A DNA stretch of 64,000 nucleotides from Arabidopsis thaliana (lineage: Eukaryota > Streptophyta > Magnoliopsida > Brassicales > Brassicaceae). The stretch's first letter is position 1, and each line of letters opens with the position of its first letter. This document shows positions 1 through 21,100 of the stretch, one piece after another. Below the pieces are notes generated by a model that was not told the origin of the DNA, did no database searches, and worked only from the letters and a program-made list of their open reading frames with translations. The position numbers were made by a program, and so were the translations under genes. Location of the stretch: positions 569,001-633,000 of the forward strand of contig NC_003071.7 in the NCBI RefSeq assembly GCF_000001735.4. The letters are read 5' to 3'.

Positions 1-2
1 AG

Positions 3-613
3 CTTCCCCTCAGACCTAAGCAGCTGATAGAAATATTTAGAAAAGATCATGGAGTTGGAATCAATTATTCGAAGGCTTGGAGAGTTCAAGAACATGCAGC
101 AGAACTTGCGAGGGGTTTACCTGATGATAGTTTTGAGGTTTTACCGAGGTGGTTCCACAGGGTACAAGTGACGAATCCAGGTTCTATCACTTTTTTCAAA
201 AAAGATTCTGCTAATAAGTTTAAGTATGCGTTTCTGGCTTTTGGTGCATCAATTAGAGGTTATAAGTTGATGAGAAAAGTCATATCTATTGATGGTGCCC
301 ATCTGACATCAAAGTTTAAAGGGACTTTGCTTGGTGCCTCAGCTCAGGATGGGAATTTTAATTTGTATCCTATTGCTTTTGCAATAGTTGACTCTGAAAA
401 TGACGCGTCATGGGACTGGTTTTTGAAGTGTTTGCTGAATATAATCCCTGATGAGAATGATTTAGTTTTTGTGTCTGACCGAGCATCCGGAAGAAAAAGA
501 GGATACCTTCTGTTTGGGAGCATGGACGGTCTCAGCCAAAACCAAAATTACACAAATGCAGTAGGTGTGGTCAGTCGGGTCACAACAAATCAACTTGTGT
601 TGCTGCAATTTAG
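3..613 (+). pseudogene. MULE transposase (MURA), partial, internally deleted
   Basis: The reading frame is open from base 3 to about 496 and gives a typical plant MULE transposase core: a helix-turn-helix-like stretch (YSKAWRVQEHA), then ISIDGAHLTSKFKGTLL, where the D is the first acidic residue of the DDE catalytic triad, then PIAFAIVDSEND and FVSDRASG around the second acidic residue. Immediately after SDRASG the frame changes. The new frame (497-613) encodes a C-terminal CCHC zinc knuckle, CSRCGQSGHNKSTC, followed by a TAG stop. In complete relatives a few hundred residues, including the third catalytic residue, lie between these two parts. I infer an internal deletion that joined the catalytic core to the tail out of frame. 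The 5' part lies outside the window. It is not functional as a transposase. Confidence 0.85.
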
Positions 614-1500
614 ATATATCTTTATCTCCAAAGAATTGAATATTGTTGGGTTTTTAATATTTTCTTCATTGTGTCGTGTCATTACTCTCGTTTGTTAAAA
701 TTACTATCAAACTTTTACAAATAATTTTGAAGGTTATTCCAATATTTTACCTTTTAAAATCTCTTGTAAAATCCTGTTTAAAACGTCTGTTTAAATCCTT
801 TTAAAATACCTTGTAAATCTTTCGTTATGCCACTTAGATATACTTTAAACGATTGTAAATCAAGTTAAACACTTTTACAAGCTTTTAACTTGAATCTTTT
901 AAAATGTCTTGTAAGTCGTTTACTAAAATTACTATCAAACTTTACAAGTAATTTTAATAGTAATTCCAATAATTTACCTTTTTAACATATTTTGTAAAAG
1001 CCTGTTTAAAACGTCTTTGAAAATCCTTTTAAAATACCTTGTAAATATTTCGTTATGCCACTTACATATACTTTTAACAATTGTGAATCAAGTTAAACAC
1101 TTTTACAAGCTTTTAAAATCCCTTATAAATCATTTTCTGACATTAACTTATTCTTCTTAAACGATTGTTAATCAAGTAAACCCCTTTTAAAAGCTTTTAA
1201 AATCCCTTGTAAATCATGTTTTACCACTTTATTATCCTTAAAAACCGATAGCAAACCATGTAAGCTGTTTATGCCTTTAAAATCACTTGTAAATCATGAC
1301 AATTCTTATAAAACCATAAACAGTTGACAATAGTAAAGCATTTTGATTAGATTTGACAGTCATAATTAAAATACAAGTACAATCATAGATTCCAAATAAC
1401 AAAAGTAAAATAAACATGTTTGAAATAAGTCAGTATAAAAAACTAAATCCATTTTTGCCTTAGTAGCTCTGTCCTTCTCTACCTGCAAATAAAATTCAAC
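614..1500. repeat. TTTTAAAA/TTGTAAA motif array, left block
   Basis: This non-coding stretch between the transposase and the 3' end of the DUF1985/J-domain gene is composed of loosely repeated units. Each has a TTTTAAAA-like core followed by CCTTGTAAATC or GATTGTAAATC, alternating with a segment resembling atgccacttayttatgct. The same units recur at 2900-3830, 5400-5600, 6350-6540, 7985-8160, 9110-9530, 11950-12690 and within most introns of the element. Copies vary in spacing and sequence, so the array is old or was amplified in a relaxed way. No coding potential was seen. Confidence 0.85.
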
Positions 1501-1581: not shown

Positions 1582-1944
1582 CATTATTATCTTGCAGATT
1601 TGTTCAGCTAGGTATTTCACTTCTGGATGAGCTCGAGGCAGTTTGTCAGGATGAATGAGTAACGTTGCTTTCTTTAATGCTAATTTGTATTTCTTCTCGT
1701 CCCACATTTTCCAAATTTCGACTTTTTGCCATTTACTGTCGGACCAAAGAATCTGAAATGTAAAAATTCCAAAATGATTAGAATTAAAATCTTTTGCAGC
1801 AAAACAATGATGTAATTTAACTTACTTCTTCAAGTGACGATAGTAGATCTCTTATTAATTTGTTTTTCGCCCATTTTTTAACTTTTAGGTCAATTTCTTC
1901 CATTACTTCATGACTCAACATGATCGGCGTCAAAGGAGTTTGAA
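1582..1944 (-). other. Auxilin-type J domain exons (HPD motif) inside the MULE gene
   Basis: Two exons, 1944-1826 and 1752-1582, are separated by a 73-nt intron with GTAAGT donor and TTTCAG acceptor. The first supplies the helix-rich stretch DLKVKKWAKNKLIRDLLSSL, the second ILWSDSKWQ followed by KYKLALKKATLLIHPDKLP and EVKYLAEQICKI. In host auxilin-like proteins the equivalent order is (K/R)xW..gKegNIRaLLstLqyiLWPgsGW....Y.rAtLc.HPDK....qKY.AEkvF. J domains stimulate Hsp70 ATPase, and auxilins do so to uncoat clathrin vesicles. The intron falls in the same place relative to the LLSTL/ILWP junction that I remember from host genes, which would point to capture of genomic DNA rather than a retrocopy. 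Confidence 0.8.
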
Positions 1945-2159
1945 CTGATACAAAAACAAAAACAAAAATATTTAGAAGTTGTTTATCAAGGCAAATCATC
2001 TGTGAATGTAAAAAGAACTTACGACTGCTCTGTCCCTGGGTGATTTCTTCTTCTTGCGTAGAGAGTGGTGTTTGATTAACATCTTCATCATCTTTCTTGG
2101 TCTCTCTTGGAACCTGTAACAAAAACATCAAAACAAATTTTTATTTTTTGACAATTTTA

Positions 2160-2815
2160 TCATGTCTTTTTAAACAATTAAGGAATGCAGACCTCTTTTA
2201 TTTCTTCTTTTTGAGGTTGTGATTCTTTCTCTGTGGGTGCAGTCCCATTATCTTCATCATCTGACAAAATTACATATGCTTCTTGATCTTCAGTCTCATC
2301 ATGTTCATCATGTTCTTCTACGTTTTCTTCTTTTGCAACCTGTAAACCAAAACATCAAAACAAATTTTTATTTTTTGACAATTTTATCATGTCTTTTTAA
2401 ACAATTAAGGAATGCAGACCTCTGTTGTTTCTTCTTTTTGAGATTCTGATTCTTTCTCTGTGGGTGCAGTCCCATTATCTTCATCATCTGACAAAATTAC
2501 ATATGCTTCTTGATCTTCAGTCTCATCATGTTCATCATGTTCTTCTACGTTTTCTTCTTTTAAAACCTGTAAACCAAAACATCAAAACAAAGTTTTTATT
2601 TTTTGACAATTTTATCATGTCTTTTTAAAAAGTTAAGGAAAGCAGACATTTGTTTCTTCTTTTTTTTTTGTGATTCTTTCTCTGTGGGTGCAGTAGCATT
2701 ATCTTCATCATCTGACAAATTTATATACGCTTCTTGATCTGCAGCATCATTATATTCATCATGTTCTTCTACTTTTTCTTCTTTTCCTTCTTCTCTTTCC
2801 ATTTCTTCATCGCCT
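2160..2815 (-). repeat. Three tandem copies of an acidic exon plus its intron
   Basis: A unit of about 215 bp containing an exon (antisense of tcttcatcatctgacaaaat and surrounding Ser/Asp/Glu codons) and its flanking intron starts near 2170, 2385 and 2610. The first two copies are nearly identical and the third is diverged. Each exon copy encodes a Glu/Asp-rich segment (for example LSDDEDNATAPTEKES in the third) and keeps splice-site-like borders. It is tandem exon amplification inside the DUF1985/J-domain gene. Confidence 0.8.
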
Positions 2816-3139
2816 TGTTTGGGATTCTCTTGTTTTTCTGTTTCTTCAACATTGCAAGTAGAATGATGATCTCTGTATTCAACCTGTATAAATAATTACA
2901 AGTTCCCAAATACAAGCCAGGACACACTTATTAGTCATTTAAATCACTTTAAAAAAGCTTTTAAAATCCGTTGTAAAATCTTATCGAGCACTGTCTACCC
3001 TTTAAAAACGAATTTCAATCTTTTAAAACCCCAATAAGAAGTCTTTAAAACCCCTTGTAAATACATATCTAACACTGCTTATCTTTTTAAAACGGCTAAA
3101 AATCTTTAAAACACGATTTATAAGCTTTTAAAATCCCTT

Positions 3140-3900
3140 GTAAAAACACATACCTTTTCTTCTTCCTCTTCTTTTCCTTCTTCCTTTTGCTTTTCTTCTT
3201 CCCCTTCCATTTCTTCATCGCCTTGTTTGGGGATTTCTTGTTTTTCTGTCCCTTCGTCGCCTCTGTATTCAACCTGTATATAAAATTACAAGTTTTATAA
3301 CTACAAGTTACTCATGTAAATCACTTATAAAGAGCTTTTAAAATCCGTTGTAAAATCTTATCGAACACTGCCTATCACTTAAAAACGAATTTCAATCTTT
3401 TAAAACCCCATTAAGAAGTCTTTAAAATCCCTTGTAAAAACACATACCTTTTCTTCTTCCTCTTCTTTTCCTTCTTCCTCTTGCTTTTCTTCTTCCCCTT
3501 CCATTTCTTCATCGCCTTGTTTGGGGATTTCTTGTTTTTCTGTCCCTTCGTCGCCTCTGTATTCAATCTGTATATAAAATTACAAGTTTTATAACTACAA
3601 GTTACTCATGTAAATCACTTTTTAAAAAGCTTTTAAAATCCGTTGTAAATACTTATCGAACACTGCCTATCCTTTAAAACGAATTTAAATCTTTAAAACC
3701 CCATTAAGATGTCTTTAAAATCCCTTGTAAATACATATCTAACACGGCCTATCTTTTAAAAACGGCTAAAAATCTTTAAAACACGATCTATAAGCTTTTA
3801 AAATCCCTTGTAAAAACACATACCTTTTCTAATTTCTCTTCTTTTCCTTCTTCCTCTTGCTTTTCTTCTTCCTGCTCCTTTTTTTCGTCCTCTTCTTTTT
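3140..3900 (-). repeat. Second amplified exon family (Glu/Lys-rich), two to three copies
   Basis: A unit of about 290 bp begins with the intron motif array and contains an exon encoding runs of E and K (antisense of cttcttcctcttcttttcc). Copies start near 3150 and 3445 and are almost identical, including the segment encoding QGDEEMEG and the following intron. A third, partial copy at about 3826-3900 runs into the exon at 4024-3830 that encodes ENCEVLKKKVGRLEGYLGIERV, a short heptad-like stretch. The exon duplications lengthen a low-complexity acidic linker between DUF1985 and the J domain. Confidence 0.75.
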
Positions 3901-6589
3901 GTTCTTCTCTAGTATAACTGGCAGGAACTCTTTCGATGCCTAAATAGCCCTCCAGCCTTCCAACTTTCTTCTTAAGAACCTCACAATTTTCATATACCAG
4001 TTTTACCTTCTCACCAAAGGACATTGATTTCCTTTTTCTGCTTTAATGCACAACTGTTTCAATTGCAGGTTTCAAGACATGATCAATTCTTCCTTGATGT
4101 CCTTGTTCCACTTGAATCCATCCCTGACACCAATCCTTCTTGCTCATTCTTTATCCTTTGATCACAAGATCAAAAACATCCAACAGATCCTTGTCTTCAG
4201 GATTCTTCTGTGAAACCAAGTGCTCGTATTCATGATTATGAACACCAACTATTGGTGTCACTTCAACCTGCAAAGATAAACAAAATTCCAAACTGTGTAA
4301 AAATAATGCACAATTCTTAATTAACCTTTTAAAATCCGTTGTAAATAGTTTAAATTGCTTTTAACCCTTTGTAAATCTTTAAAACTTGATTGTAAAAACT
4401 ATTGTAAAACATACTCTTTATTTATAAACAGTGTTTAAAACATAAAAAAAAAACCATAACTAAGAAAATGTACCTTGTCACCATCTGCTATCATTGTTAT
4501 AGCTTTTGCACTTGGAGACGATGTTGATCTCCATTGGAGAATTAATGGAATATTTCCACTAGATGATTCATCTCTAGTGCCAAACTTTTCTCCCAACTTC
4601 TGAACCGATGATAATGCCCATATCTGAATTGATTGAACAAATCCAAATAGACCATATTGTTTCCTTAACAAATAGTCATTACCGATTCTCTTCACTTCAG
4701 TTACCAAATATGAGTACACAATCTGCACCCATGGATACTTACAGAACTTTTCGAAATCAGTAGCTCTCTTCAGATTCTCAATTGGCAGCATGGTAGTCGA
4801 ATTTCGAGCTAGCAATATGCCCTCCACTAGTAACGAACCCGCCAATCTCAGTCTCTCCTCTGGCTGCATTTTTTTGGAACGCTTTTCCAAAACATATGTA
4901 AGATCTAAAAAAGTCATTTCCTTGTTAATCCACACATCTTTTTTCTGCTTTCCCTTCAAAGTCTGATTATCTTTTATCCACCGCTTTTCTTTCTTCTTTT
5001 CTCTTCACATTTGGACTGCTTCCTGATGCATCATCCATTGGAAGTCCTGTTGTTATGATAAACTCTCTCAGGGAGAATCGCATAGGTTGATCAGCAAATA
5101 CAAACCACAATTCGTCATTGTTGGTTAGTATTCTTCTCTGGAGTAAATGATGAACGATATGGCTTGAAAATGCTAAGTTCATTTCAGCGAATTCCACTAT
5201 AGGACCCAAGAATGTGTCCATTAATGTGTTGAACTCTATCGGCTCTAAAGCTTTCCTGACAGTCGAGACAATTTTGAAGGATGAATGCTTTGATACCCTT
5301 GTAATATTATCTACTTCGCTGCCTGGTTGGAACAGTCTTTTAGGGAAGAACAGTTTCTTTGTACTCATATTTCTCAAAACCTGATTAAATACATTAACAC
5401 AGTCATTAAATTAACACAGTTTTTTGAAATGGTTTTAAAAACCATTTTTGTAAATCTATTATGCATTTGTTGTTTTCGAAACATAAACATAGTCATTACA
5501 AGTCGTTTAAAGAACTTTAAAAACCCTTGTAAAACCATTTTTCAAAGTCATTAGAAGTCGTTTTAAGACTTTAAAAACCCTTGTAAAACACAGTCATTAC
5601 CCCATAATCCTTTTTAAAGACCGTTTTGAAACCATTCCAAAAACAAAATTTTAATCATTTTCAAAGAACACAACCGCTGAAAATAGAAACAAAAAGCCCT
5701 TTTCCAAACCAACTCCAATCAACTGGTAACCCATATATTAAGTGAGGATCTATAAATTAAAATACAAACCCAAACATCAATCTATTTACTGTTAAAGTTT
5801 CAAAACGAAAAAACTTTGAAATTGCTACAACAGAGAAGTTAATCGGCATTTGAAATCTTCTTTGAAGGTTTTTGAAACCCAAATATCAAACTTTAAAACA
5901 TAAATCTGTCAAAATTATATAACAATTTTCAACACTCCCTCAAAATCCCAAATATCAATTTATTTTACTTGTTTCGTTTTCAACCGAAAAACCTAGAAAT
6001 GCTAGAACAAAAAAGAGATTCGGCAAAAATCAAACAAACCCAAATGTTAAACTTCAGTTTCGTAAATTAGTTACCTTCAATTGCTTCCTTTTTGCTGGAT
6101 AATCAGATTTTCTTCAGATTGTTGAAAGGAAGAAGACGAAGACGACATTTATTCTTTTTTTTTTTTTTTTTTTGGTTACTTTTTTGTTGTCTTTTCACGG
6201 TTCCCTTCCTTTTTTGTTTTTGGGTTATAGTGAATTTTTGGGCTTTAGTGTTTTTTGGGCTTTTAGTGTTTTTTTACTAAAACAGTTTGTTTTTCTAAAT
6301 AACAGGCCTAGGCCCAATTAGTAACAGATACAGTGTTTAACATTACTGTAACTTTTTCAACGGTTGATATTCTCTTTTAAAAACGGTTGTAAATCATTTT
6401 AAAAATGGTTGTAAATCTTTTCATAATAACAGTTACTACAGCTTTTTCAACACTTTTAAAACGCTTTTAAAACAGCTTATAAATCGTTTGTAAATCTCTT
6501 TTAAAAACGGTTGTAAATCATTTTAAAAACGATGATTGAACACTATCGGGTTTAGGCAACCCAGCACAACCACAAGGACTTGCTGGATT

Positions 6590-6820
6590 AGCATCATGGT
6601 TTGAGTGTTCTTCTTAATGTTGTTAACACTATCGGGTTTTTTTTGTGTCAAAACTAAGGCATTATCACGGCTTGAGTGTTCCTCTTAATGTTGTTAACAC
6701 TATCGTTTTTTTTGGTGTCAAAACTAAGGCATTATCACGGCTTGAGTGTTCCTCTTAATGTTGTTAACACTATCGTTTTTTTTGGTGTCAAAACTAAGGC
6801 ATTATCACGGCTTTTTTGGT
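6590..6820. repeat. Tandem repeat, about 70 bp x 3
   Basis: The unit starts with cttgagtgttcctcttaatg and ends with aaggcattatcacgg. Copies begin near 6600, 6671 and 6741. The last two are identical over nearly the whole unit and the first has small changes, so the array expanded recently. No gene is seen here; the plus-strand frame that crosses it simply follows the repeat. Confidence 0.85.
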
Positions 6821-7058
6821 TGTATCAACTTAAGCTTGTTTCAGCTTTGACTTTGATAAAGAGCATGACATGTTTGCCTCTTGTATGACATTTTTTGATT
6901 TGCACTAAAAATTTGTCTTTCAAGACAACAACATAAAACAACATTTTGATTAATAAAGAGCCATCAAGACAATAACATGAACAGCATTTTGATTAATAAA
7001 GTACCATGTAGACAACAACATCAAAGATAGAAAAAAAAACATTTGGATACCAACACCA

Positions 7059-7590
7059 CTAGTAACCTAGAACAAGTTTCTGATTTTTGGTTTTACCGAA
7101 CATTATGAAACCAAAGACAATGACAATCAAACCAAGACTCACCAAACACACTTTGATCATCAATTTGCATTTCTTGATTTCCCTTGAGCTCCACATTCCT
7201 TCTTCCTTCAGTACTACGATCATAGCCTATAACTCATCAATTTCGGCTGCAACTTCAGATTTGGCAATGTTAATCTCATTGTCAATGTTGGACAACTTCG
7301 GTAAAGCATCAACAACCTCTTCGTACACACCATTTTCGACCCATTTAAACAGATGATCCTACATTTCAATCCAAAACAAATTATCAACCAAACCAAATTC
7401 AAAACACAAAATCAATTAAACTTACATCTTTCTTCGTTGGACAGCGGAAGAAGGGTCTTCCAGGGTTTGTCTGTGAACCCGATGTGTAGACAACGACGTC
7501 TAACCAACAAATACACTTGGAAGGTAACCCACGTCCCCAACGACCTCCGTCTTCAATACTCGAATTCGAATTCGCGGAATTTGAACTCAT
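7059..7590 (-). pseudogene. GRF-type zinc finger protein with C-terminal membrane segment, internal stop
   Basis: Exon 1 (7590-7426) encodes MSSNSANSNS and then a GRF zinc finger: GLPSKCICW, then TSGSQTNPGRPFFRCP, with C-x-C, the NPGR core and the final C before P. A 67-nt intron (GTAAGT...TGTAG) joins it in phase to exon 2 (7358-7059): [15 protein letters not shown], a coiled-coil-like acidic stretch, and a hydrophobic C-terminal anchor (CLVSLGLIVIVFGFIMFG). This is the layout of a large plant GRF-zinc-finger family, many members of which sit in or near transposons. An in-frame TAG after AAEIDEL (about 7230) truncates it before the membrane segment. GRF fingers bind single-stranded nucleic acid in other proteins; the role here is unknown. 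Confidence 0.75.
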
Positions 7591-9064
7591 TTCTTGAGCT
7601 CAGGATGGAGAATTCCGAAGATAAGAAGATTTGAAGCTCCAATCCCGTATAAACAATGTAGAAGAAGAAGAATAAACAAAATCTGGGAATTGGAATTGAA
7701 TTTCAAGTTTAGGGATTTCAAGTTCGATTTTGGGGATTTATCAGATATGGGATTTTCGATTAGGACCAAAACGTGGTCGTTTCGCCACTAACAGAGAAGT
7801 ATTAACGGATCTAAACGTCTGTTAGTGGGTCTGTTAACAGAGTTTACGAGATGTCTTAATGGGCCTGGTCAACGATATTCCATGTTTTAAAAGTTTGGTC
7901 AACGATAAGTTGATGTTTAATATGGCCTTAGACGAAGTTGACGTATTAAACGGCCACTTTTTGAAAGTTCGGCAATTATTTGACATTTTCTCCCTTTTAA
8001 AAACGGTTGTAAATTATTTTAAAAACGATTGTAATTTTTTTTCATAATAACCGCTATTGCAGCTTTTTCAACACTTTTAAAATCCTTATAAAGCAGCTTG
8101 TAAATCGTGTTTAAAAACCCTGTTTAAAAGCATGTTTTTAAAAACCCTGTTTAAAAGCATGTTTAAAGTCGTTTTCTATTCAAATCAAAGCACCTGTTAA
8201 CCCAAACAACCATTATACAGTAATTTTGTAAAACAGGAGTTGAACTAAATAAACTTCATAAATCTTGTTCCATACAGATGTTCATAAAATATTCAAATGA
8301 CAAAGTTTTATGAAATAAGAAACAAAAGCTGATAAATCTATCTTATACTCCACTACTTTTTGATTAGAAGTCTGCTACTTCTACAAAGTGACTGACCCTA
8401 ATTCGGTGAAGATGTCAGCAGCCAATTTATTCCTAACGTTTTGAATTATGTTCCCTTCAAGGTTTGAATGGCTGGTATACATTGAGTAGCATTCCATAAA
8501 CTTCAGCATATAGATACCAGACTCTTCATTTCTAGGAGCCTACAACCAAAAACCAAAAGAATTACTTAAGCAAAGAAGTTATAGAAGTCAGGACTTACGG
8601 AATATTCATTTCTAAGACTATGATATATTTAAAGAAGTTACGTGAGGAAAAGTGGTCAGGACTTTGATGCTAAATGGAGAGACATCCATGTCTTCTTTTT
8701 TGAGGATGTTCCGAACAATGTATGGCATAGCTATAGAGTAGGCAGTAACATATTTTTTCTTGACTTCTTCTGTTAAATAAGAAGCTGCACATTCCCATAT
8801 ACAAACTGTCTTCTGTTCCAAGTGGATGAGCAAGGCAACCCAGCATTTTCCTTTGATACAGAAAGGAGCCAATATGCACTTGGTTTCTTCCTCTATTATC
8901 AGCTTACTGATTTCTTCAGACTGAAACTGAAATCCCTCTTTGTTATCCAAAAACTTCATGTATGACTCATCAATCACATTTAAGAAAGACGATCCAACAA
9001 ATACAACTGATTTGTTTTTGAATAATTCTGGATTGCTTTCCTTCCTCGTTTTCATCAACTCCAA

Positions 9065-10950
9065 AGCTGCATCAACATGCTAAACACAACAAAAATAAAA
9101 ATTATCATATTAGAAAACCCCTTTAAAAACGATTGTAAAAAATGCAAACCCTTTTTAAAATACCTTGTAAATCATTCTACGCCACATACTTATGCTTTTT
9201 AACGATTGTAAATCAAGTTAAACACTTTTAAAAGCTTTTAAAATCCCTTGTAAATCATTCTATGCCACTAAGTTCTGCTTCTAAAACGATTGTTAATCAA
9301 TTAAACCCTTTTTAATAGCTTTTAAAATCCCTTGTAAATCAATCCTTACCACTTTCTAATCCGTTAAAAACGATTGCAAGTCATGTAAATCCTTTTTAAA
9401 ATACCTTGTAAATCATTCTTTACCACTTTCTAATCTTTAAAAATTGTTTATAAACCACGTAACCCTTTTTAAAATCCCTTTTGTAAATAACTTAATGATG
9501 CTTTAAAAACTATATGTAATTCATGGGTTACCAATTTTACAAGGATTTTTAGACATATCGTTGCTGTGATTGCTTTCCCTGGCGTCTCTAGGGTTGTAAA
9601 CCACTTTGTATCTACATTATTTCCCGCGATTGATAGTGGCCTACAACAACAAAACAGTCAACAATGATGCTTGTTCCATTATTAAAAAAAACTCACTATC
9701 TTACTAACAAAACTCACTTGTTTTTCCTTGACTTCTTCCATTCAGCCAATTTCTCAAGTCTTGTGCCATCAACTTTCGCAAATGGATGCAAAATTGGATG
9801 TTTCTTCTTCTCAGCTGTGAAAGGTGCTTGGGTATGAATGGAAGGAACCGTACCCCACTTACTCTTTCTTTGCGGAGCGGGCTGAAAATCATCATTGTCG
9901 CCATCATTATCAGCGTTATCACCATCATTGCCAATAATTTTCCTTTTCTTACTCTGTGCCTATCAAAAATAATAAAAAAAATAGATGTTTAAAATACCTT
10001 GTAAACAAAATTTTCAAAATCATAATAAATTAGATACTAACCTCTTTCCTTGTTGGAACATCAACATCAGCACTATCAACTTGTTTCTGCCTCTTTCTCG
10101 GCACTTAGAATAGTAAAAAACACCAATTAAAAGTACTCTTAAAATCCGTTGTAAATATCATAACAAGACAATTGACAAATTTTAAAAACAGTACTGTTGC
10201 AAATACTAACCTGTTTTCTTGTTTTAAGATTATCCTCAGCATGAACACTTGCTTTAACTCTCTTGTTCTGAAGTTGCATGAAAGATAAACTTTTAAAGAT
10301 TTGAAAAAAAATTTATAAACACTTGGTTAGATAATACAAATTTTTTTAAATGCTAACCTCATTTCTTCCTCTGCTAACTCTCTTCTTATCCTTTTGAACA
10401 TCCAGACTTTCTTCAGACAAAATATTGAAATTTGGTGTAGAGGATCGTGGAGTAGGAGACTTATCCTTGAAAAGATAACAGAATGTAAAAATATAAAAAA
10501 GATACTAATAATTTTTGTAAGACTTTTAGAGATATAAATTACTGTACTTTTGATGATTCTTCAGCTACTTCATCACCAACATCACGTTGGGTGTTTTCAT
10601 CATCACCCGGATAGCTCCCATACTGTGTGTTTGGCTCTCGGATTGAATCTTCAAATGATTCATTGTCATTCTGCAACAAAATAAAAACAATAAGTCAATC
10701 ATTAATATAATTAGTATACCTTTAAAATAGCTTGTAAAGATTTTCAATTACCTCTGCTTTTCTTTCTAGTCCTCCTTCTTCTTCAGCCTGCGAAAAAAAA
10801 GAGTATATTGTAAAGGTTTACTACGTATTTAACCTTTAAAATACATTGTAAAACCTTTCCTTTCAAATAGCTTTTAAAGAAACATTTACAATTACCTCTG
10901 GTTGTCTTTCTACTCCTTCATCTTCTTGTTTTCTTTCTTCATCTTCCTCA
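9065..10950 (-). other. Small Lys/Glu-rich exons and motif-repeat introns of the ULP1-like gene
   Basis: Between the coiled-coil exon and the peptidase exons lie several short open stretches on the minus strand, rich in Lys, Arg, Glu and Ser (around 9934-9720, 10060-10100, 10230-10270, 10360-10465, 10540-10675). They are separated by introns containing TTTTAAAA and TTGTAAA motifs. A basic stretch (KKRKIIG-like) near 9940 could be a nuclear localisation signal. I can place these as linker exons but cannot assign each splice site. Confidence 0.5.
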
Positions 10951-11949
10951 GATCTCTAATTATTCTTTTCCTCCATTCTAATGTCCAAAATCCTCTCAAT
11001 CAGCTCGACTCTCTTGTTAAGATCTTCAAGGATTGTCAAAATCCTGTCAAGCTTCTCGCTATCAGATATTTTGTTATTGATTTTGTTTTGACCTACTTCT
11101 TCAAGGGCAGCACAAACATCAACGCATCTTGTATTCCATTCAGTTTTCTTCAATCTGTAGCCCATATTAACAAGTCCCAAAATATGTTGGAATTCTGTGT
11201 CGTCTGTGTGGAAATCAGGAACTAAAGACTTGAAGTCTTCTGGGTTTCCAATAATTGTATTCACCTCCATCTGCGAAGATACAATAACATTACAAATTTT
11301 GAGAAAGCAGAACTTCAAATCTAAAAACCATTTAAAGAATTCTGTAAATAGACAAAAGCTTACCTCAGAAACATCATTTACAAGGTTTACGATCTTGAAA
11401 AACTCTGGAGTAGTAGTGCTTTTTCACTTCAATATCAATGGATATTCAGATTGGAATTCCTTATCTTTAACTCCATATGCTGCACCAAATGCTGGAACTG
11501 CGCTCAACACCCATATTGTTAGCGCTAGTCCAAATCCTCTCAAATCATATTTCTCTTTTGCCCAAGTTTTCTCGTCCATTCTCAGAATTGAATTTGATAG
11601 AACACTGAATGCTTCTTTACCCCACGGTTGGGCTGTGTACATCTCAAAATCAGAAGCATGTTGCAATCTTGGCAAAGGTATCTTCTCTTTTCCATATGGT
11701 GTCAAAAGAATTCCTTCAGTCAACACTACTGCAGCAAGACACAACTTTTCTTCATCTTCAACAGCAGGTTCACCTTCCTTAGGTTTTAAAAACAATCGAT
11801 CTTCGAGATCACCAAGAGTATAGGATCCTTTACTAGCCCAAAAGTATGGTTCTTTTACAGGATCTTTCCCCTTTCGTCGAAGTTCCCTATGAACAGGTTC
11901 ACATTGAATTCCTGTATGAACAAAAGACAGTGTAGAGACTATTATTACA

Positions 11950-12707
11950 GGTTTTATAGTAAATACTTTAAAAACGATTGTAAATCATGTTTAACACTTT
12001 TAAAAGCTTTTAAAATCCCTTATAAATCATTCAATGCCACTAACTTATGGTTTTAAAAACGATTGTAAACCATGCAGACACTTTTAAAATCCCTTGTAAA
12101 TCATTATATGACACTTACTTATGCTTTAAAAACGATTGTAAATCATATTTAACCCTTCTAAAAGCTTTTAAAATCTCTTGTAAATAATTCTATTCAACTT
12201 ACTTATGCTTAAAAAACGATTGCTAATCATGTTTAACCCTTAGAAAAGATTTTAAAATCCCTTGTAAATATTCTATGCCACTTACTTATGTTTTTAAAAT
12301 CGATTGTAAACTATGCAAACACTTCTAAAATCCCTTGTAAATCGTTTTAAGACACTTACTTATGCTTTTAAAATCCCTTGTAAACGTGTTTAACACTTCT
12401 TTAAGCTTTTAAAATCCCTTGTAAATTATTCTATGCTAGTTACTTATGCCTAAAAACGGTTGTAAACCATGCATACCTTTTTTAAAATCCCGTGTAAATC
12501 ATTATCTGCCACTAACTTATGCTTCTTAAACGATTGTTAATGAAGTAAACCCCTTTTAAAAGCTTTTAAAATCCCTTGTAAATTATCTATGACACTTACT
12601 TATGTTTTAAAAACGATTGTAAACTACGCAAACAGTTATGCAAATGCCTTGTAAATCATTCTACGACAGTTAATTAAGCTTTAAAAACGATTGTAAAACT
12701 TTATTAC
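11950..12707. repeat. Motif array filling intron 1 of the ULP1-like gene
   Basis: This is the cleanest copy of the element's motif array. Units of roughly 80-90 bp alternate a TTTTAAAATCCCTTGTAAATC-like part with a TTTAAAAACGATTGTAAATC-like part, linked by variants of atgccacttacttatgc. It lies wholly between the two DUF1985 coding exons. The array therefore has to be transcribed and spliced out if the gene is expressed. Confidence 0.85.
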
Positions 12708-13395: not shown

Positions 13396-13616
13396 AGAGG
13401 AAAACGAAGAAGTTTGTGCCGAAGAAGTTTGTGAAACCAACGTGAAACCTAATCATTCAGAGGGTAAGACAGTCATTTGGCATATTAGAAGGGGTAGTTT
13501 TAAAAATGGACTTCAGGAAAGGGCACTTTTACAAAAGGTTATTAGAATAATGGCAGTTTTGCAAATCTCCCTTAAGACAAAGATGCTCATGTACCAATAC
13601 TCTAAGGGGGAAACGT

Positions 13617-15097: not shown

Positions 15098-18000
15098 CTA
15101 GACATCATCAAGCCAAGAGACTAACTGTTGAGTCGTTGGCCTCTGTTTCGGGTTTTCGCTTAAACATAAACAAGCAATCTCGAGAACCCGAAACATCTCT
15201 TTATCATTCTCTTTACTGTATATTAACGGATCGAAAACCTCGCTTGCTCGACTCTCATGCTTCATCTTGACGACCCACGAGATCAGATCCCTACACCCTT
15301 TCGGTTTACACATATCCACCGGTCTTTTATCGGTTAAAAGCTCGAGAAGCACAACTCCGAAACTATACACATCGCCTTTGTAAGTAGCAACCGAAGCTTG
15401 CCCGTATTCCGGAGGAATGTAACCTAAAGTTCCAACCAAATCAGTACTTACATGCGTCTCGTAAGGACTCATCAGCCTTGCGAGTCCGAAATCCGCTAAA
15501 TGAGAGTTGAAATTCTCGTCGAGAAGAATATTACTCGATTTAATATCGCGGTGTAAGATATGAGGATCACACCCTTCATGCAAGTAAAGTAACCCTTTTG
15601 CAGCACCTTGAGCGATTCTAAGACGTGTTTTCCACTTCAACAACGCTGGACCGTCGTTACGCTCGTGTAGCCAATAGTCTAAGCTTCCGTTTTCCATATA
15701 CGAGTAGATTAAAAGCCGGTCGTTTTTGTAGAAACAGAATCCTCGGAGAAGAACAAGATTTGGATGCTGTGCTCTTGAGAGTGTTTCAACTTCTGCTTCG
15801 AATTCTCTTTCGATTTGACCGCAATCACCGGATAACTTCTTGATCGCAACTTTCTTACCGTCTGGTAACGTTGCTTTGTAAACCATACCAAACCCGCCAC
15901 AGCCAATGATGTTAGCTTGATCAAAACTATTTGTTGAGTCCAAAAGGTCATCATAAGAGAGCTCTTTATCATTGCTCTGAAACAAAACCACAAGCTTAGA
16001 TCCAATCTCTCCGAGTTCTTTACGATTCATGCTCTCGGATTCTTCTATCTCCGGATCAACTTCTCCTGACCGTCTACGAGCACGCAACACAATCAACGAG
16101 AGAAGAGTCAAAAGAAAAACCGAACCAAACGCTATCCCAATCGCCATTCCAATGTCACCTCCTCTGCTTCTTCTTGACCGTTTGATCAATGCACTCTCAG
16201 TACCTTCAGAACAGGGGAATCTGTGTTCCCCGCAGAGATGGTTACTCTCAAAGCTCGAGTTTGGAAACGTCTGAAACTGACCACCGGAAGGTATTACTCC
16301 CGAGAGATTGTTATAAGCAACACTGAACTTCGACAGAAACGAGAGCTGTTGCAGAGAAACCGGGATCGAACCCGAAAGACGGTTATTAGAGAGATCAAGA
16401 GCTTCCAAGCTCGTCATACCAGAAAGCGAGCTAGGTATTGATCCAGATAATGCATTCCATTTCAAATCAAACACATGAAGCTTCTTCAGATTACCAAACT
16501 CCTCCCAAATAGGTCCAGAGAGATTGTTATGACCAAGCTCAATCGTTGGCGGGAACCCGAAAATCTGATTGTATTGCAACGCTCTCGCGCTCTCGTTTCT
16601 TTTCATAAAGAACGGGAAATCAGGAGATGGCTCATTGACTGAGATATTACGGCTAGTGAGACTCTCTAACTTAGTTAAGCTCTTAGGGATCTCTCCTGTA
16701 AACGAGTTGTTAGATAAATCCAAGTAGAACAGAGCCTTGAAGTCACCAATCCAGCTCGGGATAGCGCCGGTTAAACGGTTCCAAGAAAGATCCAACAACT
16801 GAAGTTCATTACTCGAGCTTAACCACCTCGGCATCGAACCAGTAAGCCTACAATTCGCCACTACAAGCACCTTAAGCTTCTCGAAATGAAGACTTGAATC
16901 ATCGGGTAAAGCCTCTCCATGGAAATTCAATGTAAGAACCAAAGTCGTCAAGTTCTTGCAATGCTGAAGTATCCCAAGCGCTGAAGAGATATTAGCCAAA
17001 CTCGAATTCGATAACGAGAAGTAAGATAAGCTCTCGAAGTTCTTGAAACTCTCTGGTACTTGTCCATGGAAGGTGTTCCTCGCGAGGTTAACGTTCTTTA
17101 ACCGCTTGCAATCCGGTAGATTCTCAGGTAACCTCCCATTGAATCTATTGGTACCTAAATCAAGAGAGTTCAAAGCAATCATCGCCGTACAATTCAACAT
17201 CAAACGACCCGATAAAGAATTGTTCCTCAAGTTAAGCAGATTCAAACTCGGTGAATTCGCCAACGATTTAGGTATTCCTCCAATGAATCCATTGGTCTGA
17301 CCTAAGAAAAACTTTAACTGAGGCAATTCGTCGAACACATCAGGGATTTCACCGGAAAACAAATTCCAAGAAACATCAAGACGAACAAGACTTGAGAGAT
17401 TCCTAATCTCACGACTCAACGAACCAGAGAGACGATTCTCTTGAATCCCTAAAAGATTCAATCTTTTGAGATGAAACAAATCCTCAGGGATGTTACCAGT
17501 AAGATCGTTCATACCAAGACAGAGATGCTCAAGCAAGACACATTTCCCAAACCCGGAAGTGAAGTTTCCGGCGAAGTAGTTCACCGCAAGTTTCACAACC
17601 CTAATTTGAGTAGAGTTATGGCAGATATGAGACGGAAGCGACCCATTGAATTTATTTGAAGAAAGATCAAAACTTTGCAGAGCTGGGAGATTTATACTTG
17701 TTGGGATTCCGCCGGAGAGATCATTAGAGCTCAAATCAAGAGTTTGTAGATTCTTCAAGTTGAAAATCGAAAGAGGGATCGAATCTTTGATGAAGTTTCG
17801 AGAGAGATTAAGAACCCTAATCTCATCTAGCTTCCCGAGAGATTCAGACAACTTCCCCGACAGCTTTTTGTTCCCAAGCTCCAATCTAATAACTCTTCCG
17901 GTGTTGTTTGAATTGCAGGTGATTCCGGTCCAGTTGCAGCAGTCTGTAGAAGAAGAAGAATTGATCCAACCATCTGGTTTTGGTTCGAGATGTGCTATGA

Positions 18001-18124
18001 AGTCACGTAAGGCTTCGAGGTCATGTGGATGGCACCTGGAGGTGGTCTGAGATTCCGAGGAATAGAAGAAACATAGTAACTCTGTGAGGAAGATGACGAT
18101 CACACAAAAACGATGAACACGCAT
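15098..18124 (-). CDS. PSKR1: Phytosulfokine receptor 1, LRR receptor kinase
   Basis: This single uninterrupted frame of 1008 codons encodes a complete LRR receptor-like kinase. Residues 1-25 form a signal peptide (FCVIVIFLTELLCFFYSSES). An N-terminal cysteine pair (DCCNWTGITC) precedes about 21 leucine-rich repeats, interrupted near residues 500-540 by a non-LRR island (SVNEPSPDFPFFMKRNESAR) that in this family binds the sulfated peptide phytosulfokine. A transmembrane helix (MAIGIAFGSVFLLTLLSLIV) lies near 660-680. The kinase has the glycine loop IIGCGGFGMVYK, the lysine in VAIKKL, the catalytic loop HRDIKSSNILLDE, DFGLARL and GYIPPEYGQ, so it should be active. It acts at the plasma membrane with SERK/BAK1-type co-receptors to promote growth and damp immunity. 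Length and sequence match the Arabidopsis protein as I remember it (At2g02220). Confidence 0.97.
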   Translation of the reverse strand: MRVHRFCVIVIFLTELLCFFYSSESQTTSRCHPHDLEALRDFIAHLEPKPDGWINSSSSTDCCNWTGITCNSNNTGRVIRLELGNKKLSGKLSESLGKLDEIRVLNLSRNFIKDSIPLSIFNLKNLQTLDLSSNDLSGGIPTSINLPALQSFDLSSNKFNGSLPSHICHNSTQIRVVKLAVNYFAGNFTSGFGKCVLLEHLCLGMNDLTGNIPEDLFHLKRLNLLGIQENRLSGSLSREIRNLSSLVRLDVSWNLFSGEIPDVFDELPQLKFFLGQTNGFIGGIPKSLANSPSLNLLNLRNNSLSGRLMLNCTAMIALNSLDLGTNRFNGRLPENLPDCKRLKNVNLARNTFHGQVPESFKNFESLSYFSLSNSSLANISSALGILQHCKNLTTLVLTLNFHGEALPDDSSLHFEKLKVLVVANCRLTGSMPRWLSSSNELQLLDLSWNRLTGAIPSWIGDFKALFYLDLSNNSFTGEIPKSLTKLESLTSRNISVNEPSPDFPFFMKRNESARALQYNQIFGFPPTIELGHNNLSGPIWEEFGNLKKLHVFDLKWNALSGSIPSSLSGMTSLEALDLSNNRLSGSIPVSLQQLSFLSKFSVAYNNLSGVIPSGGQFQTFPNSSFESNHLCGEHRFPCSEGTESALIKRSRRSRGGDIGMAIGIAFGSVFLLTLLSLIVLRARRRSGEVDPEIEESESMNRKELGEIGSKLVVLFQSNDKELSYDDLLDSTNSFDQANIIGCGGFGMVYKATLPDGKKVAIKKLSGDCGQIEREFEAEVETLSRAQHPNLVLLRGFCFYKNDRLLIYSYMENGSLDYWLHERNDGPALLKWKTRLRIAQGAAKGLLYLHEGCDPHILHRDIKSSNILLDENFNSHLADFGLARLMSPYETHVSTDLVGTLGYIPPEYGQASVATYKGDVYSFGVVLLELLTDKRPVDMCKPKGCRDLISWVVKMKHESRASEVFDPLIYSKENDKEMFRVLEIACLCLSENPKQRPTTQQLVSWLDDV

Positions 18125-21100
18125 TTCAAGAACAGAGGAAGAAGAAGAAGAATATAAAGGAAGAAACTTTGAGAGAAGAATTAAGATTCAACAAAAACCC
18201 TTGAGAAATCTGAGAGTATACGAAACGGGTTTTCTGATTATTGCCATTTTAGATGATGATCAATGAAGATGAAGAAGCAAGAGAGAGAAAAATGGCGACT
18301 TTTGACTTCAACACGCAACAGCAAGTAGTGGGTGTTGTTTTAATGCAAGCAAAATTCTAGAGAGAGATAGAAAGTGGAAGAGTTGTGTTTGGTCTTTTTT
18401 CTGATACAGAGCAAACAGTAAAAATCTTTAAATAAAGAAGAAGAAGAAATAAGAAGCTTTGAATAAATATTATTTTTCCAAATATTTTGTGAATTAATTT
18501 GTGTTTTTGGAAAATTTGTTATAGACAAATCTTTTCCGTGTTTTGTCAATTATAATTGAGTGTGTTTAGTCATATATGAAGTCTTAATCAATAACATTGA
18601 CTTAGGAAAGTCTTTCTCTAAATATTTTTTTTATTTTTTTGTCTAAATCTTTTACTTTGAATAGTTTGTCGTTCAACGGATAGGCAGAAGAAAATTTGGA
18701 ACGATTAATGAATAATGAATGATGAAAGTGATCGAATTTAGAAAAATATATGCAAAATTATGTGACTATAAATGTTTCTTTATGGTTTTTTGCCGATTAT
18801 TCTGCAAATGGTAGATTTATATTTTAGTAGTTTCTATGCAATAAAAAGGTAAAGGAGTAGCTTTTATTAATTATATTGATTTTATTTTGCAAATGGTTAA
18901 TTTTTATATTAAAATTTGATTATGGGTTAATTGAATAATAATTAAAGATGACCGGAGAAGAAGGGAGTGACCGGTTAGGTCAGCTTTGAGGATTTAAGAT
19001 GAGGACAAGAGAAAAGATAGAAGTCAAAGCACGGACGTTGACACCTTTGCATCTCTCTCTCTTCTCAACTACAATTTTTTTTTTTTTCTATTTACATTAA
19101 TTATTGACATTGTTTCTCTTTTTTCGCAAGTTGATAATGAATGAAAATAGACCTACTAGATATTCTTTAGTTTCCGATAAAAGCTTCGGAAAAAAATCTT
19201 GAGTTTTTTCCATAAAATCTTGAAATACTTCAAAGAGGAAGGTTATCAACTTAATTGTTGTATTTGTTGGTTAAAAGAATCTAATATAGGAGCTATTTTT
19301 TTTTAGCTATTTACATGTCCAAATCAATACGTTATAATTCCAATCAAATTACTAATATTAATTTCATATGACCGGACTTGTATAACTTGAAGTTTATAAT
19401 ATCACTATACAATAACTTGACTTCTAATTTAGAAGTATAACTATAAAAGTGTAACGTATGTGAGTTGTAGACGATAAAAAAATAAAAGAACGGTTATATA
19501 TAAACTATTTTATATTTTATATAAAAGAAACTAAAAAATAGTCGGTATAGGAACATAAATTTCATTGCTTTTTTCTTCAGTTTTTTTATCACCAATTTTC
19601 ATTGCTAAAGGATTATTTTTTGTCGTTAATACTTTTTTCTTTTAAAAACGACAAATTTAGGATGCGTTAATATTACTTTTATATGTAACGCTATCCTAAA
19701 TTTTGTCGATAGAATCCGTTATTAATTAATTGGAAAGAATCGAAAAAAAAAAATTAATCTTGGCAGTTAAAAAATGGATTCTCTTATACCTTTGTAGTAA
19801 TATACACGTTATAGATTGTTCGAAAAAAAGAAAAGGATAATAGATTGTCATTTTAACAAAATAAAACCAAAAAGTCTCACATTTTCTTGCCATGATTTAT
19901 TTCTTAAAGAAAAATAGGCTGTTTACACAACTTTCTTTGATGGTTTACTTGATTTATAAGTAAATGAGGACAATATGGGTGAATGGTGAATTGAACATAG
20001 ACATAAAAGACTATATTGCTTAATAAACTAATTAGCCTACATTCAAAGTTGGTTTACCATATAAGAAATCACTTATATAGTTTTCCTAGTGTGTGCATGA
20101 TCTTTCATAAAGAGATTAAATATTGTTTTACGTGGAAAAGTTAAGATACGATTCCATGTTAATAATAAAATATTAATGTCGATATCTATAATGAAGGAGA
20201 CAGTCAAAGCATGTGACATCGACTATTCAACTCTATAATTAATCTTCAATACCATGTGGCTCGTAATGGCTTCGATATAATCGGCTTTCGTTAGTCTTTT
20301 ATAGGTTCTTTTTTTCTTCTGAAAATTGACTTACTAAGTTTTATAGTTTATTATAGCTAATTTTGATATATATGATATTACAAATAGTGTGACTTTGATT
20401 GGTAATAAACTAATAATACTCTTGCTGGTTGTTGCTAACATACAACGATTTTTTTTGGTAAAAAAGTATAAATTAGAATGTAAATAAAGATGACTGATAT
20501 TTACCCTTTCTAATATTTTCCTACCTTTCCCGTATGTCTCTAAAACTCCTAAAATATACTACGATCCTAACTACTAAATTTATAGGAAAAATACCCAAAA
20601 TAGAAAAAAACTTTGTAGTTTGACCCAAAAAAACATTGCAGTTTAAATAGAAAAACGAAACAAATGTGAAAGATAATATTTGAAAATGAAATAAAAAAAT
20701 GCTCTTGCTTTGTTACACAACACAATTCACAATCTTTCAGAGTTTAAAAGCTCAACTATTTCTATTCACTAAAAACCCAAGGTTGTTGTTTTCGTAATGT
20801 GTGCAACAAAGCCCATAGTATAGTTTTTCTTAAAAGCCTTCGAAGTTAGATTAGAACTGACCCAGTTTTACTTGCTTGGGTTTGTTGTATTCACATCACA
20901 AAAAGCCTTGATCTTTTCTGTTTTCTCAACAAATCAAAATAACCATATACACTTTGTTCACAAATCACAAGAGATCATTCAGCTACACGATGTCTTCTTT
21001 TTCCAGGCGTGATCTAGAAGATGGTAGTTACTAGGTAGGAATATAAACGTTTTAGACATTTAACTGAGCGAATGTGTGAATCATGGACAAATGGTTTCAG

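What the first reader, a model, noticed from the sequence alone, without database searches (positions are those of the whole stretch)
1582..1944. Auxilin-type J domain captured inside a MULE accessory gene
The 3' end of the DUF1985 gene encodes DLKVKKWAKNKLIRDLLSSL, then ILWSDSKWQ, then ATLLIHPDKLP and EVKYLAEQI. This follows the order of the C-terminal J domain of plant auxilin-like proteins, HPD motif included. I know of no role for a J domain in a transposon protein. Two explanations compete: neutral capture of a host fragment (transduplication), or a protein that recruits Hsp70 for the element. The conserved HPD and clean exon borders, next to a decaying N-terminal half, suggest the J-domain portion was under constraint at some time.
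Basis: partly seen in the sequence, partly recalled or inferred. Interest (0 to 1): 0.8.

Follow-up and report, generated by a model that had tools for sequence, protein, structure and literature searches.

The report
Transposon gene carrying stolen chaperone domain
A family of Arabidopsis jumping genes carries, fused to one of its own accessory proteins, the part of a plant auxilin that calls in the chaperone Hsp70; it may help the element undo its own silencing, but that function is not shown.

Summary
On the minus strand, window 1826-1944 and 1582-1752 encode an auxilin-type J domain with HPD; a third exon (from 1482) was missed. It matches a solved Arabidopsis J domain (3ag7, E 2.4e-13) and bovine auxilin (3.8e-7). 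It is not a one-off: 13 copies of one MULE family carry it, then identity drops to 30-37% at 8 host auxilin-type places. Both exon-B borders sit where they do in 7 of 7 host genes with a full exon B, so intron-containing DNA was captured. The element family encodes a mudrA transposase, a KIU-type DUF1985-Ulp1 gene and this DUF1985-J gene, a paralogue of the KIU gene.

Constraint is only partly supported. Intact frame plus HPD after the divergence seen is unlikely under neutral evolution (0.4-2% of simulations), but the branch test is not significant (p = 0.08), and changes among the 13 copies look neutral (ratio 1.16), as decay after a burst would. Best reading: a second captured host domain in a KI/VANDAL MULE, perhaps the Hsp70-recruiting arm of an anti-silencing-type protein. 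Capture well supported; function inferred.

The parts
1366..1482 (-). J-domain exon C (VEKDRATKAKMDLV...), last exon; in this copy the stop codon seen in L043 is changed and the frame runs on (end counted by hand, approximate)
   Evidence: translation; alignment of 13 copies; counterpart of the host last exon (EAW...)
1582..1752 (-). J-domain exon B, 57 codons with the HPD motif
1826..1944 (-). J-domain exon A (QTPLTPIMLSHEVMEEIDLKVKKWAKNKLIRDLLSSLEE)
2040..3820 (-). repeated acidic exons of the same gene (outer limits approximate), three motif places of the SUMO-interaction-like kind YVILSDDED / YINLSDDED
   Evidence: ORFs; motif listing; shuffle control
3824..4267 (-). second exon of the DUF1985-J gene (limits counted by hand; 2 in-frame stops in this copy)
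   Evidence: ORFs
4474..5368 (-). DUF1985 exon of the J gene, broken into two overlapping frames in this copy
   Evidence: Pfam PF09331 E 7.7e-9 and 6.1e-8, the second under its cut-off
6534..7990 (.). stretch absent from the related chromosome-1 copy; holds a GRF zinc-ribbon-like ORF (7399-7599, -); not taken as part of the family
8621..9079 (-). Ulp1 (Peptidase_C48) exon of the KIU-type gene of the same element
   Evidence: Pfam PF02902 E 4e-27
11427..11984 (-). DUF1985 part of the KIU-type gene
   Evidence: PF09331 E 5.9e-8, 33.2 bits against a cut-off of 35.1
1..606 (+). fragment of the mudrA transposase gene, tail to tail with the J gene; about 0.9 kb missing at 484-488 relative to the chromosome-1 copy
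   Evidence: Pfam MULE domains shown in copy L048
13572..13580 (+). right copy of the 9-bp target-site duplication TTAAGACAA; left copy at C2:566748-566756, outside the window
   Evidence: left end GAATAATTC also seen in two other fetched copies

Best explanation
The region is the 3' end of an accessory gene of a Kaonashi/VANDAL-type MULE. Shown: the element family carries mudrA, a KIU-type DUF1985-Ulp1 gene and a paralogous DUF1985 gene whose C-terminus is an auxilin-type J domain, with splice sites and frame kept; the J part corresponds to the last three exons of a host auxilin-type gene, taken as intron-containing DNA. Inferred: the DUF1985 part, like its VANC relatives, takes the protein to element chromatin; repeated SIM-like acidic motifs may hold SUMOylated partners; the J domain recruits and triggers Hsp70 there, as auxilins do at clathrin coats (recalled), to take apart silencing complexes or help transcription. 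The window copy is a decayed member.
For: Homology to 3ag7 and bovine auxilin. 13 copies with matches to both exon A and exon B. Exon-B borders the same in 7 of 7 host genes with full exon B, exon-A donor in 6 of 6 read. Five splice dinucleotides around the J exons intact in 13 of 13 copies. In-frame join from the last acidic exon through A, B and C in one copy, L043. No stop among majority J codons before the terminal one; HPD kept in 11 of 13 copies. J near 13 of 18 close KIU-end termini, and near 2 more the DUF1985 of the J gene with J deleted. DUF1985 of J gene and KIU-type genes 31-39% identical in two blocks. A 553-aa open transposase in one J-bearing copy. Neutral simulation keeps frame plus HPD in 0.4-2%. 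VANC proteins with DUF1985 bind element DNA and cause loss of methylation (PMC5735166, passages read).
Against: Among the 13 copies the J exons change as if neutral, (N+stop)/S 1.16 times neutral, while DUF1985 exon 1 (11 copies) shows 0.66, p = 0.023. Branch test on the stem not significant, p = 0.081, with a saturated stem. Host-invariant positions only weakly better kept (p = 0.06; 0.04 with one exception allowed). Two copies have lost HPD (HPN in L048, HRD in L051), and 4 of 13 have a stop in exon B. The 13 copies are one young burst, not independent witnesses. No expression, Hsp70 or DNA-binding data. The SIM-like motif was picked after being seen.
Confidence: 0.5

Rival explanations
1. 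Neutral transduplication: the J exons were swept into the element, happened to be in frame, and ride along without function, as most captured fragments in MULEs are thought to do (recalled).
For: Neutral-like change among copies; stem omega = 1 not rejected; HPD lost in 2 of 13.
Against: Frame, five splice dinucleotides and HPD were preserved up to the burst while amino-acid identity to the closest host fell to 32 of 80; only 0.4% (all change on the element side) to 2.0% (half of it) of 2000 neutral runs each keep frame and HPD, indels not simulated. But the 13 copies descend from one recent ancestor, so this is one witness, not 13.
Confidence: 0.35
2. Folding helper: the J domain calls Hsp70 to fold or assemble the element's own proteins (transposase, KIU) rather than acting at chromatin.
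For: J domains in general recruit Hsp70 (recalled); J gene and mudrA lie in the same element.
Against: The fusion partner is DUF1985, whose studied relatives (VANC) act in sequence-specific anti-silencing (PMC5735166, passages), not in transposase folding; no contact evidence either way.
Confidence: 0.12
3. Not a J domain: chance similarity of a short lysine-rich stretch with HPD.
For: Pfam DnaJ does not match; AlphaFold2 of exon B alone is low confidence, pLDDT 62.
Against: E 2.4e-13 to 3ag7 over query residues 2-83 and two conserved intron positions. No host auxilin exon is among the PF00226 matches either.
Confidence: 0.01

Closest known systems
Kaonashi (KI/KIU) MULEs: VANC-type DUF1985 gene with a transduplicated Ulp1 domain
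   Same: Same element type (mudrA plus a KIU-type gene in this very family), a DUF1985 protein with a captured host domain at the C-terminus, no terminal inverted repeats found, 9-bp duplication
   Different: Here a second DUF1985 gene carries an auxilin-type J domain instead of Ulp1. The review PMC13317346 (passages and section 11 read) says KIU is one of three coding genes in such MULEs; the third may be this gene or a relative of it, so the gene as such may already be known. I could not read Hoen 2006 or Sasaki 2022 to see whether a J domain was noted
VANC anti-silencing proteins of VANDAL21/VANDAL6
   Same: DUF1985, variable regions made of tandem repeats, accessory gene of a MULE beside a transposase (PMC5735166, passages)
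   Different: A J domain at the C-terminus; the J gene's DUF1985 is only about 23-39% identical to the rows outside its own family (KIU and other DUF1985 genes not sorted there); activity untested
Plant auxilin-type J proteins (JAC1, auxilin-like; names recalled)
   Same: J domain with HPD, both intron positions
   Different: Sits behind DUF1985; 30-40% identical to the seven host exon Bs; other auxilin parts were not searched for

Membership tests
Auxilin-type J domain | significant sequence match to auxilin J domains | tested here: met
   3ag7 E 2.4e-13; 1nz6 3.8e-7
Auxilin-type J domain | HPD motif | tested here: met
   HPD in the window and in 11 of 13 copies, window included
Auxilin-type J domain | exon structure of plant auxilin J domains | tested here: met
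   exon-B borders same in 7 of 7 host genes with full exon B; exon-A donor in 6 of 6 read
Auxilin-type J domain | stimulates Hsc70 ATPase | not testable with these tools
   needs a bench assay
Pfam DnaJ (PF00226) | score above the curated cut-off | tested here: not met
   no match at E up to 1; the 8 host auxilin-type places are not among its matches either
KI/VANDAL-type MULE | mudrA-type transposase in the element | tested here: met
   PF10551, PF03108, PF04434 in copy L048; the window copy holds a deleted mudrA
KI/VANDAL-type MULE | 9-bp target duplication and no long terminal inverted repeats | tested here: met
   TTAAGACAA on both sides of the window copy; right terminus inverted, 15 bases with up to 3 mismatches, not found on the left side. 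Left end seen at the same base in L050 and L058. Duplication found for the window copy only; an earlier search with wrong boundaries found none for it or for the C1 copy
KI/VANDAL-type MULE | KIU gene (DUF1985 + Ulp1) | tested here: met
   its DUF1985 is just under the cut-off in the window copy
VANC anti-silencing protein | DUF1985 | tested here: met
   68.8 bits in copy L043
VANC anti-silencing protein | binds element motifs and causes sequence-specific hypomethylation | not testable with these tools
   needs transgene and bisulfite data

The most novel reading that the evidence does not exclude
A DNA transposon encodes its own targeted Hsp70 co-chaperone: DUF1985 guides the protein to the element's chromatin, SIM-like repeats hold SUMOylated silencing factors, and a captured auxilin J domain sets Hsp70 to take the silencing assembly apart, as auxilin takes apart clathrin coats.
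Probability: 0.25. Interest if true: 0.88.

Novelty: new variant of a known kind. Interest (0 to 1): 0.6.

Why it matters
How VANC proteins strip methylation from their own elements is, as far as I know, not understood. If a relative in the same element group has an Hsp70-recruiting arm, chaperone-driven disassembly becomes a concrete hypothesis for that step and can be tested by one point change in HPD. It would also be a second host domain captured by DUF1985 genes, one element holding both (Ulp1 and J), which points to DUF1985 as a platform that takes on host effector domains.

Tried and rejected
Pfam domain calling: PF00226 misses the domain; set aside as a test because no host auxilin-type place is among its matches either.

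dN/dS across copies: about neutral and uninformative for older constraint, because 62 of 66 J-exon changes are singletons. It is still a result against the constraint claim and is reported as such.

Search for an element state from before the J capture: four diverged DUF1985-J relatives were fetched downstream of DUF1985. L057 and L058 have internal deletions that remove J, L059 is cut off inside exon A by a repeat with many copies in the genome, L060 has no matching downstream sequence. None shows a pre-capture end.

Donor gene: the tree puts the element on a long branch near JAC1/L038 with support 49; donor not resolved.

AlphaFold2 on exon B alone: pLDDT 62, pTM 0.27; no fold search was run on it.

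Ulp1 catalytic residues by PDB match: no Ulp1 structure matched.

GRF ORF at 7399-7599 as a VANB-like gene of this family: rejected, it lies in a stretch missing from the chromosome-1 copy.

Literature: 10 of 10 searches used, of which held J-domain, DnaJ, auxilin or heat-shock terms. In the rows listed I saw no paper on an auxilin or J domain in a transposon; the library is open-access only, listings were cut (20 of 51, 15 of 202), and only passages of PMC5735166, PMC10398659 and PMC13317346 and section 11 of the last were read. Hoen 2006 was not looked up (citation seen in PMC13317346, content recalled); PMC9016345 (Sasaki 2022) is not held.

The Ulp1 statement was mended (copy L050 had been missed by a too narrow pattern).

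Full report
The window is C2:569001-633000 of an unnamed 119.66-Mb genome with 7 contigs; by size and content I take it for Arabidopsis thaliana (recalled, not from a call).

Observation. Exon A is 1944-1826, exon B 1752-1582, and an unreported exon C begins at 1482. The spliced peptide matches PDB 3ag7 (deposited as F9E10.5; that this is JAC1 of Arabidopsis is recalled) with E 2.4e-13 over query residues 2-83, and bovine auxilin 1nz6 (species recalled) with 3.8e-7. A profile of one element exon B and seven host exon Bs also reaches human and yeast Hsp40 J domains (with one element sequence among eight this mainly reflects the hosts).

Family. In the own genome (E up to 10) there are 35 matches: 13 exon-B and 13 exon-A matches of one family (exon B 85-97% identical to the query), eight at host auxilin-type places (30-37%), and one weak match to another J protein. 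Nothing lies in between, though the tool scores only its best candidates. Ten-kb regions of all 13 copies were fetched.

Origin. In 7 of 7 host genes where exon B could be read whole, exon B starts at the same residue ([IV]L[WG]) after an AG and ends at the same place before a GT and the last exon; in 6 of 6 host genes where exon A was read, its donor is at the same place (the eighth host place, L056, has a cut-off exon B, and exon A of L055 was not found). The element keeps these positions, so intron-containing DNA was captured, not a processed copy. Exon B is 57 codons against 59-60 in hosts. Identity to the closest host is 32 of 80 aligned residues. The tree leaves the donor open (support 49).

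Element. A perfect 9-bp duplication TTAAGACAA flanks C2:566757-582571, that is up to window position 13571; one exact 9-mer in the 5.5 kb searched has roughly a 2% chance, but the left end GAATAATTCAC begins at the same base in two other fetched copies, L050 and L058, and the right end is shared by many copies. In most other copies the left-end match starts at base 29 or nearby, not at base 1, so the first bases differ between copies. Ends show no matching inverted repeats by the test. The family holds mudrA (Pfam MULE, DBD_Tnp_Mut and SWIM domains in copy L048, 553 aa open; about 0.9 kb missing in the window copy), a KIU-type gene (DUF1985 at 11427-11984, 33.2 bits, just under the cut-off; Peptidase_C48 at 8621-9079, E 4e-27), and the DUF1985-J gene. 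The J gene's DUF1985 exon matches KIU-type exons at 31-39% in two blocks, so I take the two genes for paralogues with different captured C-termini. Of 18 KIU-end termini at 85% identity or more, 13 have a J match within about 17 kb, 2 have the DUF1985 of the J gene with the J part deleted, and 3 have no close J-gene match.

Gene model. In copy L043 the last acidic exon, A, B and C join in frame and end at a stop. All five splice dinucleotides around the J exons are intact in 13 of 13 copies. DUF1985 exons 1 and 2 were found for 11 of 13 copies; 3 copies (L040, L041, L043) have no stop or gap in any of the five blocks checked, but insertions are not seen by that projection (the window copy's frameshift is hidden by it), and the acidic repeat exons were not checked. 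HPD is intact in 11 of 13; L048 has HPN and L051 HRD. Four of 13 have a stop in exon B.

Constraint. For: simulated neutral change from the host sequence to the observed identity keeps both frame and HPD in 0.4% of 2000 runs if all change is on the element side, 2.0% of 2000 if half is (no indels simulated). Against or neutral: the three-class branch model gives omega 0.05 on the stem but does not reject 1 (p = 0.081); the stem length ran to its upper bound, so that estimate is saturated. Host-invariant positions are kept more often than variable ones only at p = 0.06 (0.04 with one exception allowed). Among copies, J exons show 46 N, 7 stop, 13 S changes, 1.16 times the neutral ratio (13 copies); DUF1985 exon 1 shows 79 N, 5 stop, 39 S, ratio 0.66, p = 0.023 (11 copies). 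As 62 of the 66 J changes are singletons, this measures decay after the burst and says little about the time before it; still, DUF1985 shows a trace of constraint there and J does not.

Mechanism. DUF1985 is a domain of VANC proteins, which bind short motifs in their own element family and remove methylation (PMC5735166, passages read). Some VANC genes carry a captured Ulp1 domain, the KIU genes; what Ulp1 does there is unknown (PMC13317346, section 11 read). I infer that DUF1985-J is a VANC-like protein whose J domain recruits Hsp70. The acidic repeats hold YVILSDDED/YINLSDDED, which fit a SUMO-interaction pattern (recalled) found in 185 and 104 of 20000 shuffles of the two units and in none of three other exons scanned; the motif was chosen after seeing it, and the repeats are copies of each other. 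That J proteins already work at methylated DNA in Arabidopsis (SUVH1/3 with DNAJ1/2/3) is recalled; one search gave listings only.

Verdict. Real and family-wide. In the papers listed by my searches I saw no mention of a J domain in a transposon, but the review says these MULEs have three coding genes, so the gene itself may have been seen before; the J domain and its exon-by-exon host origin are what I add. A new variant of the known KI/VANDAL habit of capturing host domains. Whether it works is open.

Noticed in passing
window 8385-9079 (-) and the same region in other copies: The Ulp1 domain of this KIU group has Cys where the catalytic His before Trp is usual (KCW, 7 of 7 places read) and no Cys at the usual catalytic Cys-Gly place (Ser in 8, Phe in 1 of 9 read); canonical residues are recalled. 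It may be a dead protease that still binds SUMO.
   Followed up: partly
window 6534-7990: Stretch absent from the chromosome-1 copy, containing a weak GRF zinc-ribbon ORF (7399-7599, -; Pfam below cut-off); a similar-looking ORF, judged by eye, lies beside the VANC21-type region in L052.
   Followed up: partly
window 2040-3820 (-): Acidic exons repeated with their introns, number varying between copies; carry SIM-like motifs.
   Followed up: partly
window 15101-18187 (-): Open 1029-aa leucine-rich-repeat receptor-like ORF just beyond the element end (by eye; recalled as PSKR1).
   Followed up: no
G000 C3:11703678-11711253: Eleven places matching the KIU-end terminus at 78-83%, spaced about 0.7 kb apart: a satellite-like array made from an element end.
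   Followed up: no
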